From: an uncultured Muribaculaceae bacterium | GTDB lineage: Bacteria > Bacteroidota > Bacteroidia > Bacteroidales > Muribaculaceae | Length of the DNA stretch: 64,000 nucleotides | NCBI GenBank assembly: GCA_947179295.1 | Contig: CAMXAZ010000005.1 | Location: 23,721 to 87,720 of the forward strand | Direction of reading: 5' to 3' | Part shown: positions 60,655 through 64,000 of the stretch, piece by piece | Layout: the number at the start of each line of letters is the position of its first letter | How positions within the stretch are numbered: the stretch's first letter is position 1 | Position numbers and translations under genes: made by a program | Notes under the pieces: model-generated | The model's input: the letters and a program-made list of their open reading frames with translations, nothing else | Told to the model about the DNA's origin: nothing | The model's database searches: none

Positions 60655-60728
60655 GGTGTGGTAGTTCAGCTGGTTAGAATACCTGCCTGTCACGCAGGGG
60701 GTCGCGGGTTCGAGTCCCGTCCATACCG
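60655..60728 (+). tRNA. tRNA-Asp(GTC)
   Basis: Acceptor GGTGTGG/CCATACC, anticodon loop CTGTCAC, T-arm CGGGTTCGAGTCCCG; upstream TAACTTTGC promoter motif. Confidence 0.95.
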
Positions 60729-60741
60729 CTGAGGAGAGAGG

Positions 60742-60783
60742 AGAATGAGTAATTGTTTGGCTTCGGCCATCATTACTCATTCT
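60742..60783 (+). terminator. Terminator hairpin after tRNA-Asp
   Basis: AGAATGAGTAAT...ATTACTCATTCT followed by T8. Confidence 0.85.
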
Positions 60784-60888
60784 TTTTTTTGCAGCTACCG
60801 CAAAAAATCAACACCAATCCGGGTCAGCGGATTAGCATGGAAACTTCGCACATCCCCTGCGCAACTCCCCGAAACGAAGCATAAGAAT

Positions 60889-61101
60889 ATGGCGAGAGCA
60901 GATGTGGTATTCGCCTTAATGATGTGGCTCGGAATGTCAAAAGTGGATGCTTACCTAACAGCTTATCTGACCAATGCAAGCCGCGTCAGTATAGCGGCTA
61001 TGGCGACTCGCAAATCACAGGAAGAATGGATTGCTGACTACCTTGATGCGCTTTGGAAAGCGGAAACTGACGGTAAAATTAAGTTTAACCCGCTGCCCTA
61101 A
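60889..61101 (+). CDS. Small hypothetical protein
   Basis: ORF from internal ATG MARADVVFALMMWLGMSKVDAYLTAYL...; no recognised family. Confidence 0.45.
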   Translation: MARADVVFALMMWLGMSKVDAYLTAYLTNASRVSIAAMATRKSQEEWIADYLDALWKAETDGKIKFNPLP

Positions 61102-61188
61102 TTCTCTCCGCACGCCTACAATTTTGACAACAAGCGAAACAAACTGCGCATAATCTTTTGCCATTAGGCGAATTATGACTAAATTTGC

Positions 61189-61375
61189 GGTGCAGTATTC
61201 CTTTGGGGTATTGCACCCTTACATATTAGCTCAATCGCTGTCTGAACCACCACCTCGACCAAAGAACGAGCTATTACAACCTACATTGGGATTCGTGCCA
61301 TACGGCGCGGACTTATCCCATAGTAGATTGTAGCCTGTGGTGGGCTAAGACAGCGTATGGCGAAAGTCTGCGCTT
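61189..61375 (+). ncRNA. Candidate pseudoknotted structured RNA
   Basis: TAAATTTGC -7 motif at 61179-61187, a 13-pair 5' hairpin, a long multi-segment helix and two potential pseudoknots; no plausible ORF. Confidence 0.6.
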
Positions 61376-61425
61376 TTGTTTTATCTGCAAGTGCGCACAG
61401 TATTAACATATAATTTATTCTGATA

Positions 61426-61695
61426 ATGGAAGAAGAACAGAAAACACCACTTGCCGATTATTACTCCAAACCATATCAAGGTAAGCGGTATAGAGAGAAT
61501 AGCAGCGAATCATTCATAGTTCCTGCCACTATCAAAATCATTGCGTGGCTTTCCTTGATAGCAGGAATACTTGGCCTTTTCAGCGATATTGAAAACGGCT
61601 CTTGGAAATATGGACTTGGCATAATAGCCTTGTCAGTTTTCTTGTTCGGATTCTCTGCCATTGTTAAAGCGGCATATAAATATTTGGATGAATAA
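61426..61695 (+). CDS. Small two-TM membrane protein
   Basis: Hydrophobic segments IKIIAWLSLIAGILGLF and YGLGIIALSVFLFGFSAIVKA. Confidence 0.6.
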   Translation: MEEEQKTPLADYYSKPYQGKRYRENSSESFIVPATIKIIAWLSLIAGILGLFSDIENGSWKYGLGIIALSVFLFGFSAIVKAAYKYLDE

Positions 61696-61704
61696 TATAT
61701 AGTT

Positions 61705-62127
61705 ATGTCAAGAATAATTATTATTGCAATAATCGGTTTATGTTTACTTATGTCTTGTGAAAACAGCCATAACAATTCAAGCAAAGAACTTGTGCAACAA
61801 GCCAAAGAGCGAGCGAAAGAAGTGGTTATTCAATCTCTTGTAGATAAAGATGGAGCAGAACTTATGACTCCGACCATAGAGTTCGAAAGTAATGATGTAG
61901 TGGTATTACAAGCCAAGTTAAATGCCAGAAACTCATTCGGCGGTAAATCACAAACGACTATTGAGTATATTCTCACCTCTACGGGGAAAGAACGACTTAT
62001 AAACTTGGGAAACGGCAAATCTGTCGTACATGCTGCAAAAATTACTGTGCCGGATAGTCTATATTATACTCCGCAGTTCGATAGCATTGTTCAAAAGAAC
62101 ATTCTCGATTTAATGGATTGGTATTAA
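61705..62127 (+). CDS. Hypothetical lipoprotein
   Basis: Lipobox IGLCLLMSCEN. Confidence 0.6.
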   Translation: MSRIIIIAIIGLCLLMSCENSHNNSSKELVQQAKERAKEVVIQSLVDKDGAELMTPTIEFESNDVVVLQAKLNARNSFGGKSQTTIEYILTSTGKERLINLGNGKSVVHAAKITVPDSLYYTPQFDSIVQKNILDLMDWY

Positions 62128-62154
62128 GATATTAATTTTATATTCTCTCAAAAA

Positions 62155-62805
62155 ATGAATGGTATTATTCAAATAGTATTGATTCTTTTTGTATTTGCTG
62201 TCATTTTCCTTGTTCGAAGGCATGACAAAAAGAAAGAACAAGAAGATGAGGAAAGAGATAGAATCCGTTGGCGAAATAGAGAACAGTGGAGAGAAAAACA
62301 AGAAGCTGAATATAATGCACAGCGCACCAAATTAATAGATCGATTAGGCGAGTGTGTTTTGGATATTGATTTGGGAGATTATGAGGAATATGACATCAAC
62401 ACTCATGTAATGTTGTTTGAGGCCTCACGGATTATTAGGATAAAAGCTCAAGAATATAAGTTCTCGGATATATTGGGATATTCATTGGTTGATGATGCCA
62501 CAAGCGAAACAATTACCAGCTCTACGGGAACAGCAAAGACCTCAACAGGAAGTATGCTCGGACGTGCTGTTGTCGGAGGCATGCTGACAGGTGGATTAGG
62601 CGCAGTAGCAGGAGCGGCAACCGCAAAAAAGAATATTTCGGATAACGCTACAAGTCAAACTACGACTATACATAAATACACGCTATATATCAACGTGAAT
62701 AGCATACAAGAGCCTACTATCGCATTGAAAATCGGCAACAGCGTATCAAAGGCTCAAAAACTCGCAGGGGTTATAAATGTTATCATTGAACGAAATAAAG
62801 CATAA
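62155..62805 (+). CDS. Membrane protein with glycine-rich segment
   Basis: N-terminal TM; GSMLGRAVVGGMLTGGLGAVAGAATAKK glycine-zipper-like segment. Confidence 0.6.
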   Translation: MNGIIQIVLILFVFAVIFLVRRHDKKKEQEDEERDRIRWRNREQWREKQEAEYNAQRTKLIDRLGECVLDIDLGDYEEYDINTHVMLFEASRIIRIKAQEYKFSDILGYSLVDDATSETITSSTGTAKTSTGSMLGRAVVGGMLTGGLGAVAGAATAKKNISDNATSQTTTIHKYTLYINVNSIQEPTIALKIGNSVSKAQKLAGVINVIIERNKA

Positions 62806-62839
62806 AACAAACCCATAAAATAATTAAAATCACATCAAT

Positions 62840-63472
62840 ATGAAAAAGTTACTGGCAGTGCTGCTGATGTTGCTCCCGATGTTGGCTGGGTGTAGCCACA
62901 AGCCTAAAAGCCTCGTTGAGTCAAGGTTTGAACGATATATACAAGCCAAGAATCTTTCAAACGATATAGTGTCAATAGATTCGATTGTTATGGTTGATTC
63001 CACTACAATCACAAACACATTGAAAAGGATTGAATTTATGAGCGATTCGCTTGATAAATGTATATTAGCAGGAATTTCATCAATGTCTGATTCAAAACAT
63101 ATTTACAATGAAGCAAGAGCTATTGAGGCAGCACAAATTGCACTTCGTTATACAGACATCATAAATGGCGATAGAAATAAAAAGGCAACAGACTTAAAAG
63201 ACCGAATTATCGCTTTTATTGATGATAATAATGAGAGTAAATGCTATCAACTTGAGCATAAAATATATGTAAGCACCAACAACGGGAATGACATCTACAA
63301 TGCTCGCACCCTTGGGTATCAAGACACAATTCTAATTTATAAGACAGCAGACGAAGATGCGTGGACTACAAAGTCAACCCGGATAGGGACTTATTTACGC
63401 GATTATATGATGGAAACAGTTGCATCGAAGTCGGTACTCATGGATGATATTAATTCTTTTCTTGCTAAATAA
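62840..63472 (+). CDS. Hypothetical lipoprotein
   Basis: Lipobox LLPMLAGCSHK. Confidence 0.6.
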   Translation: MKKLLAVLLMLLPMLAGCSHKPKSLVESRFERYIQAKNLSNDIVSIDSIVMVDSTTITNTLKRIEFMSDSLDKCILAGISSMSDSKHIYNEARAIEAAQIALRYTDIINGDRNKKATDLKDRIIAFIDDNNESKCYQLEHKIYVSTNNGNDIYNARTLGYQDTILIYKTADEDAWTTKSTRIGTYLRDYMMETVASKSVLMDDINSFLAK

Positions 63473-63599
63473 TACCAACCGCCAAGGCCTACCACTGAAT
63501 GCGCAAGAAGACATCTATGCTGTAATTTTCAGAATAAAAAATTATTCTGACTTGCACCACTGCGCCACAAATAGGGCGAGACGATACCCCCGGCACCCC

Positions 63600-64000
63600 T
63601 TATGGGGTTGACCTCAACAAACATTCAGAACTGACAAGGCGAGGCTTCCGCAATCCGTGGAGGCTTCGCTTTTATATCTTCCCACTACTTGACAATGATG
63701 CACCGTTTGCCAAATTTGTAACGCAGGCGGATAAGGACAGAATGGAGCCGGAGCTACGCCACCAACTGTACCAGCAGATTTCAGTCAAGAATGCCCTTAT
63801 CAATAAATATCTGAAAAAGATTGCGGAAAAAGCTGAAATCACAACGAATCTCACCATGCTCATTAGCCGCCATGCCTTTGCACACATCGCGCAGGAAGCT
63901 GGCGCTGAAAGTTCAGCCATCAAGAATATCCTCGGGCATAGTAACCTCGCCACAACCGAGCGATACATGGGCAGCTTCGATACATCCAAAACCGACAATA
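63600..64000 (+). pseudogene. Tyrosine recombinase C-terminal fragment, continues past window edge
   Basis: Plus strand reads LRFYIFPLLDNDAPFAKFVTQADKDRMEPELRHQLYQQISVKNALINKYLKKIAEKAEITTNLTMLISRHAFAHIAQEAGAESSAIKNILGHSNLATTERYMGSFDTSKTDN. The N-terminal domain is missing and no start codon fits. Confidence 0.7.

What the first reader, a model, noticed from the sequence alone, without database searches (positions are those of the whole stretch)
61189..61375. Highly structured RNA candidate with two potential pseudoknots
A TAAATTTGC motif at 61179-61187 is followed by hairpin GGTGCAGTATTCC-TTT-GGGGTATTGCACC. Then come nested pairings GCTGTCT(61237)/AGACAGC(61348), CCACCAC(61247)/GTGGTGG(61337), TACAA/TTGTA, CTAC/GTAG and TGGGA/TCCCA. 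Two crossing pairings, TAGCTC(61227)/GAGCTA(61268) and GCCATACG(61297)/CGTATGGC(61354), would form pseudoknots. The last shares one C with the outer helix. I do not recognise the family. It precedes a run of small membrane/lipoprotein genes and could be a riboswitch, ribozyme, sRNA or guide-type scaffold.
Basis: seen in the sequence. Interest (0 to 1): 0.74.

Follow-up and report, generated by a model that had tools for sequence, protein, structure and literature searches.

The report
New switch-like RNA before envelope genes
A roughly 200-base structured RNA that is not in Rfam sits just in front of many unrelated genes for exported proteins in gut bacteria of the order Bacteroidales, and its conserved mutually exclusive pairings suggest that it switches those genes on and off.

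Summary
The element belongs to a large RNA family with no Rfam match: about 120 loci, nearly all Bacteroidales. The CCACCAC/GTGGTGG pairing is invariant, so compatible but untested by covariation. Its place is taken by GCGCGGAC(TT)/(AA)GTCTGCGC, kept in nearly all members, directly followed by a U-tract, and mutually exclusive with a local hairpin (P4) that also covaries. Nearly all members (78/81) carry the Bacteroidetes promoter TAnnTTTG plus a 5' hairpin. In 68 of 74 loci the next gene is on the same strand, mostly 50-76 nt after the RNA; 84% of these genes encode exported or lipoproteins (33% in control genes), from many unrelated families. In Muribaculaceae the same leader precedes different, swapped cargo genes. 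Best reading: a cis-acting switch-like leader (orphan-riboswitch or attenuator type) for accessory envelope genes. The trigger is unknown and termination is inferred. Not excluded: an sRNA released by termination, or a stability/translation leader without a switch.

The parts
61157..61160 (+). TTTG, possible -33 promoter element
   Evidence: Seen in sequence; -33 TTTG / -7 TAnnTTTG consensus of Bacteroidetes from PMC7366714; inferred
61180..61187 (+). -7 promoter element TAAATTTG
   Evidence: TAnnTT(T/C)G found 28-72 nt upstream of the core in 78/81 members; 8% of random 110-nt windows of the same loci hold it
61189..61217 (+). 5' hairpin P0 (GGTGCAGTATTCC/GGGGTATTGCACC), sequence-variable
   Evidence: >=5 bp in 70/78 members, mean -7.9 vs -2.9 kcal/mol shuffled
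61226..61385 (+). Conserved RNA core (model R1 match, 184 bits)
   Evidence: E=3e-43; the window copy is among the model's training sequences as L001
61227..61232 (+). PK1 5' strand TAGCTC (pairs 61268-61273)
   Evidence: two-sided changes at 3 pairs, 93.5% of cells paired; not part of model R1
61268..61273 (+). PK1 3' strand GAGCTA
61236..61243 (+). P1 5' strand (pairs 61348-61355)
   Evidence: helix 2: all 8 pairs with two-sided changes, 97.9% of cells paired
61348..61355 (+). P1 3' strand
61248..61253 (+). PK2 5' strand CACCAC, complementary to loop 61337-61342 (GTGGTG)
   Evidence: Invariant in 27/27 pattern-free members; complementarity only, no covariation
61337..61342 (+). PK2 3' strand GTGGTG in the loop of P5
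61276..61331 (+). P3 long hairpin (61276-61291 with 61316-61331)
   Evidence: helices 4-5: two-sided changes at all 12 of their pairs
61294..61309 (+). P4 local hairpin CGTGCC-ATAC-GGCGCG in the loop of P3
   Evidence: helix 7: 4 of 6 pairs with two-sided changes, 91.1% of cells paired
61332..61346 (+). P5 hairpin AGCC-TGTGGTG-GGCT
   Evidence: helix 8: 3 of 4 pairs with two-sided changes, 99.7% of cells paired
61305..61314 (+). PK3 5' strand GCGCGGACTT (overlaps P4 3' strand: mutually exclusive)
   Evidence: 8 core pairs kept in 98-100% of members, 100 one-sided pair-preserving changes, 4 breaks
61364..61373 (+). PK3 3' strand AAGTCTGCGC
61374..61382 (+). U-tract TTTTGTTTT
   Evidence: >=6 U of 9 in 75/81 members
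61426..61695 (+). First downstream gene: 89-aa membrane protein (cargo)
   Evidence: no Pfam family above its cut-off
61705..63472 (+). Further cargo: 140-aa lipoprotein-like, 216-aa membrane-anchored, 210-aa lipoprotein-like ORFs
63533..63603 (+). Conserved 3' box after the cargo, shared by Muribaculaceae loci with other cargo
63636..63672 (+). Intrinsic-terminator-like hairpin closing the cargo block

Best explanation
The element is the 5' leader of an mRNA. It is transcribed from its own Bacteroidetes-type promoter (TAnnTTTG) and ends, in most members, about 50-76 nt before the start codon of an accessory gene that mostly encodes an exported or lipoprotein. Its core (P1, P3, P5, pseudoknot PK1, probably the loop contact PK2) presents the segment GCGC(G/A)GAC, which pairs either locally (P4) or with the downstream GUCUGCGC (PK3). 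Shown by comparative evidence: the helices, the sense of the strand, both alternative pairings, the leader position. Inferred: PK3 followed by the U-tract works as an intrinsic terminator (OFF) and P4 keeps it open (ON), with the choice set by a ligand, factor or event sensed by the conserved core. The trigger is unknown. In Muribaculaceae the leader is a modular part of mobile or recombining gene blocks whose cargo gene is exchanged behind the same leader.
For: Family reality: homologues in 31/297 genomes of the family by BLAST; 85 and 43 covariance-model hits at E<=2e-12 among held loci. Structure: 94.0% of cells paired vs 76.9% in shuffles, 621 vs 186 two-sided cells, 0/500 shuffles, 31-43% when slid. 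Sense-strand RNA: 252 G-U vs 38 A-C cells. Switch: P4 covaries while its 3' strand stays PK3-compatible; 77/85 members can form both; PK3 duplex -14.6 vs P4 -6.9 kcal/mol on average. Leader: 68/74 next genes on the same strand, distances peak at 50-76 nt (binomial p=2e-14); only 2/59 gaps hold a TAnnTTTG of their own. Regulon: 48/57 first genes with an export signal vs 127/384 control genes (Fisher p=2e-13). Cargo exchange.
Against: No expression, probing or ligand data. The pattern scan detects no ordinary short-loop terminator at 61374; PK3 as terminator would be a pseudoknot with a loop of about 50 nt, unusual. Six of 81 members have a weak U-tract. GUCUGCGC is more conserved than riboswitch terminators usually are (own knowledge), which could mean that PK3 is a structural core helix. 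Downstream genes share no pathway. Most loci were collected with a pattern that requires CACCACCTC, TGTGGTG and GTCTGCGC, so their invariance in A2 is partly by selection; the 27 pattern-free members of A1 agree. The export-signal call is a home-made hydrophobicity rule, and gene calls are simple ORFs.
Confidence: 0.55

Rival explanations
1. A stand-alone trans-acting sRNA with its own promoter and terminator; the downstream gene is expressed only by leak-through or from elsewhere.
For: Own promoter and U-tract end in nearly all members; in B. [quoted passage not shown]
Against: Fixed spacing and strand to the downstream gene, strong enrichment for exported proteins, almost no other promoter in the gap.
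Confidence: 0.2
2. A cis-acting leader that sets mRNA stability or translation (5' shield, ribosome or RNA-binding-protein platform) without transcription termination or a sensed signal.
For: Compact pseudoknotted fold near the 5' end, 5' hairpin, variable hairpin between U-tract and start codon in many members.
Against: Conservation of two mutually exclusive pairings and of the U-tract is not needed for a static element.
Confidence: 0.17
3. A new self-cleaving or self-processing ribozyme.
For: Invariant unpaired patches around several pseudoknots; no Rfam match.
Against: No conserved cleavage-like site stands out; the long-range helix and U-tract point to expression control instead (inference).
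Confidence: 0.04
4. A DNA-level recombination site (folded single strand, as attC of integrons) at which cargo genes are swapped.
For: Cargo is exchanged just downstream of the leader; integrases lie near some copies.
Against: Promoter, U-tract, fixed start-codon spacing and sense-strand G-U bias fit RNA; an integrase was found in only 8 of about 100 loci, with a profile built from these loci themselves; similarity often runs on into the signal peptide, which fits homologous recombination.
Confidence: 0.04

Closest known systems
Orphan riboswitches / transcription-attenuating leader RNAs
   Same: 5' leader position, conserved core, two mutually exclusive helices, one followed by a U-tract
   Different: No ligand known; downstream genes share export rather than a metabolic pathway; the terminator-like helix would be a long-range pseudoknot with an invariant strand
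c-di-GMP (GEMM) riboswitches
   Same: Known (own knowledge) for controlling many unrelated extracellular-protein genes
   Different: No Rfam match to any riboswitch family; usually one copy per genome and sporadic
Bacteroides sRNAs (GibS, FopS and others of PMC7366714 and Rfam)
   Same: Bacteroidales, TAnnTTTG promoter, U-rich end
   Different: Not matched by any Rfam model; FopS was found elsewhere in L071 only
Integron cassettes
   Same: One fixed leader/promoter in front of exchangeable accessory genes
   Different: No attC-like site noticed and no consistently linked integrase; homology-driven exchange seems sufficient

Membership tests
Any Rfam 15 family | Covariance-model score at or above the gathering score | tested here: not met
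   window; 18 further loci; only FopS and tRNAs, away from the element
Cis-regulatory leader RNA | Same strand as and at a fixed short distance from the downstream start codon | tested here: met
   Strand and distance, almost no other promoter in the gap
Cis-regulatory leader RNA | Shares one transcript with the downstream gene | not testable with these tools
   Needs RNA-seq or RT-PCR
Riboswitch / attenuator | Two mutually exclusive, evolutionarily kept pairings linking core and expression platform | tested here: met
   P4 and PK3 share 61305-61309
Riboswitch / attenuator | Binds a ligand or effector that changes expression | not testable with these tools
   Needs in-line probing or reporters
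Riboswitch (metabolite) | Downstream genes share a pathway with the ligand | tested here: not met
   unrelated families, common theme only export
Intrinsic terminator | G+C-rich stem immediately followed by a U-tract | tested here: inconclusive
   PK3 stem and U-tract present, but long-range, not a short-loop hairpin
Guide-type or retroelement RNA (bridge RNA, omega RNA, retron) | Linked recombinase, nuclease or reverse transcriptase gene | tested here: not met
   No gene cluster is shared by more than 17 of about 100 loci, and the largest are lipoprotein and surface-protein families; no dedicated reverse-transcriptase search was run

The most novel reading that the evidence does not exclude
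A signal-responsive RNA switch, spread through Bacteroidales as a plug-in expression module: any newly acquired envelope gene that lands behind it comes under the same, still unknown, cellular signal, and the leader's own conservation provides the homology by which cargo genes are exchanged.
Probability: 0.25. Interest if true: 0.85.

Novelty: new variant of a known kind. Interest (0 to 1): 0.7.

Why it matters
Bacteroidales dominate many animal guts, yet few of their regulatory RNAs are known. A family of this size with a near-complete secondary-structure model and a built-in prediction (P4 against PK3) makes a new RNA switch directly testable. It also gives a handle on how accessory surface proteins, which may shape phage, neighbour and host contacts, are expressed and exchanged.

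Tried and rejected
CTCG/CGAG hairpin instead of PK1: kept less well, and the outer pairs of PK1 covary. Reading of TATGGCGAAAGTC as the start of a leader peptide: start codon absent in divergent members such as GCGTAGAGATAGTC. Coding sequence: spacing between conserved blocks is spread over all three frames. Pattern hits in Desulfobacteraceae (L062) and Marinobacter (L075): not confirmed by the model, chance. Phage and plasmid records: no match; two IMG/VR contigs carry it. Whole-genome search with the RNA model over the class was uninformative because only 7 candidates per genome are scored. A pattern meant to find members with altered PK2 was mis-specified and missed even the window, so PK2 remains untested. 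Defence-system scan of first genes: only isolated hits. Literature searches found no description; supplements of PMC8040213, which lists thousands of structured-RNA candidates from human microbiomes, could not be read.

Full report
What is there. The window lies at the end of contig C5 of a genome whose relatives include Heminiphilus and Barnesiella sp. WM24, so most likely Muribaculaceae (inferred). Between a tRNA-Asp (60655-60729) and a truncated integrase at the contig end (63742-64000) sits a block: promoter and structured RNA (61180-61382), four small membrane/lipoprotein-like genes (61426-63472), a conserved 3' box (63533-63603) and an intrinsic-terminator-like hairpin (63636-63672).

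A real RNA family. BLAST found homologues in 31 of 297 genomes of the family. A covariance model built from 27 pattern-free members confirmed 85 and 43 hits in the held loci (some loci are the same place fetched twice). The exact pattern occurs in 28/297 genomes of the family and 10/393 across the order, so it is accessory, usually one copy, sometimes two or three. Rfam has no match.

Structure. On 85 aligned members the structure P1, P3, P4, P5, PK1, PK2 has 94.0% standard pairs (shuffles 76.9%; slid by 1-3 columns 31-43%), 30 pairs with two-sided change and 621 two-sided cells (shuffles 186), with 0/500 shuffles reaching four of the five measures and 1/500 the fifth. The alignment was fitted to P1, P3, P4 and P5, which favours them; PK1 and PK3 were not in the model, so their support is independent. 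PK2 (CACCAC with the GTGGTG loop of P5) is invariant and rests on complementarity only. PK3 (GCGCAGAC/GUCUGCGC) keeps its 8 core pairs in 98-100% of members with 100 one-sided pair-preserving changes and 4 breaks. G-U cells outnumber A-C cells 252 to 38, so the sense strand is the functional one, as expected of an RNA.

A built-in switch. The 5' strand of PK3 is also the 3' strand of P4. P4's 5' strand covaries with it, while that shared strand only changes in ways that keep PK3; 77 of 85 members can form both. PK3 is the stronger duplex (-14.6 vs -6.9 kcal/mol on average, pseudoknot cost not counted) and is followed at once by a U-tract (at least 6 U of 9 in 75/81). This is the layout of an attenuator, but termination is inferred: the terminator scan sees no classical hairpin there.

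Position and regulon. 78/81 members have TAnnTT(T/C)G 28-72 nt upstream of the core, followed by a sequence-variable hairpin; the motif is the known -7 element of Bacteroidetes (PMC7366714). 68 of 74 next genes are on the same strand, most of them 50-76 nt after the RNA; upstream genes show little strand bias (43 of 72). Only 2 of 59 gaps contain another such promoter. First genes encode export signals in 48/57 cases against 127/384 other genes of the loci (p=2e-13), lipoprotein signals in 16/57 against 26/384. Families include Big_2, BspA-type LRR, lipocalin-like, OMP barrels, and occasionally cytosolic enzymes such as an EcoRI-type methylase; many have no family. In the window itself the first gene starts 41 bases after the core, somewhat closer than usual.

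Modularity. In Muribaculaceae, pairs of loci are similar from the promoter region through the leader, often into the signal peptide, then differ completely, and are in several cases similar again after the cargo. In L131 an extra gene sits between the leader and the lipoprotein gene that directly follows the leader in L033. The window's own genome holds a decayed second block whose RNA core is deleted (L002). L162 carries two tandem leaders with near-identical flanks but different cores. Integrases lie within a few kb of a minority. Homologous recombination between leaders explains this without a dedicated enzyme (inference).

Verdict. A new family of cis-acting leader RNAs with a conserved switch-like architecture. 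That it is a real structured leader is near certain (about 0.95); that it regulates by PK3/P4 attenuation is likely but unproven (about 0.55); the signal is unknown.

Noticed in passing
L002:1521-2740 (same genome, G000:C13): A second leader-cargo-3'box block in the window's genome in which the RNA core is deleted (promoter and part of the 5' hairpin remain); its cargo resembles that of L032/L085.
   Followed up: partly
L162:5053-5554: Two leaders in tandem, 347 bp apart, with nearly identical flanks but clearly different RNA cores, as if cores are exchanged as units.
   Followed up: no
window 63533-63672: Conserved 3' box plus terminator-like hairpin shared by Muribaculaceae loci with different cargo; not seen in other families.
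   Followed up: partly
window 60745-61101: Small ORF upstream of the leader, homologous to ORFs upstream of the leader in L032, L035, L039, L085 and L124; no Pfam family; probably part of a mobile element next to tRNA-Asp.
   Followed up: partly
window 63742-64000: C-terminal part of a phage-type integrase cut by the contig end.
   Followed up: no
L085, L127: Contigs labelled Saccharibacteria and Lachnospiraceae carry the Bacteroidales RNA (L085 nearly identical to the window copy): probably mis-binned MAG contigs.
   Followed up: no
L061 and L065, about 1.6 and 3 kb downstream of the leader: A 51-bp direct repeat in the second cargo region.
   Followed up: no
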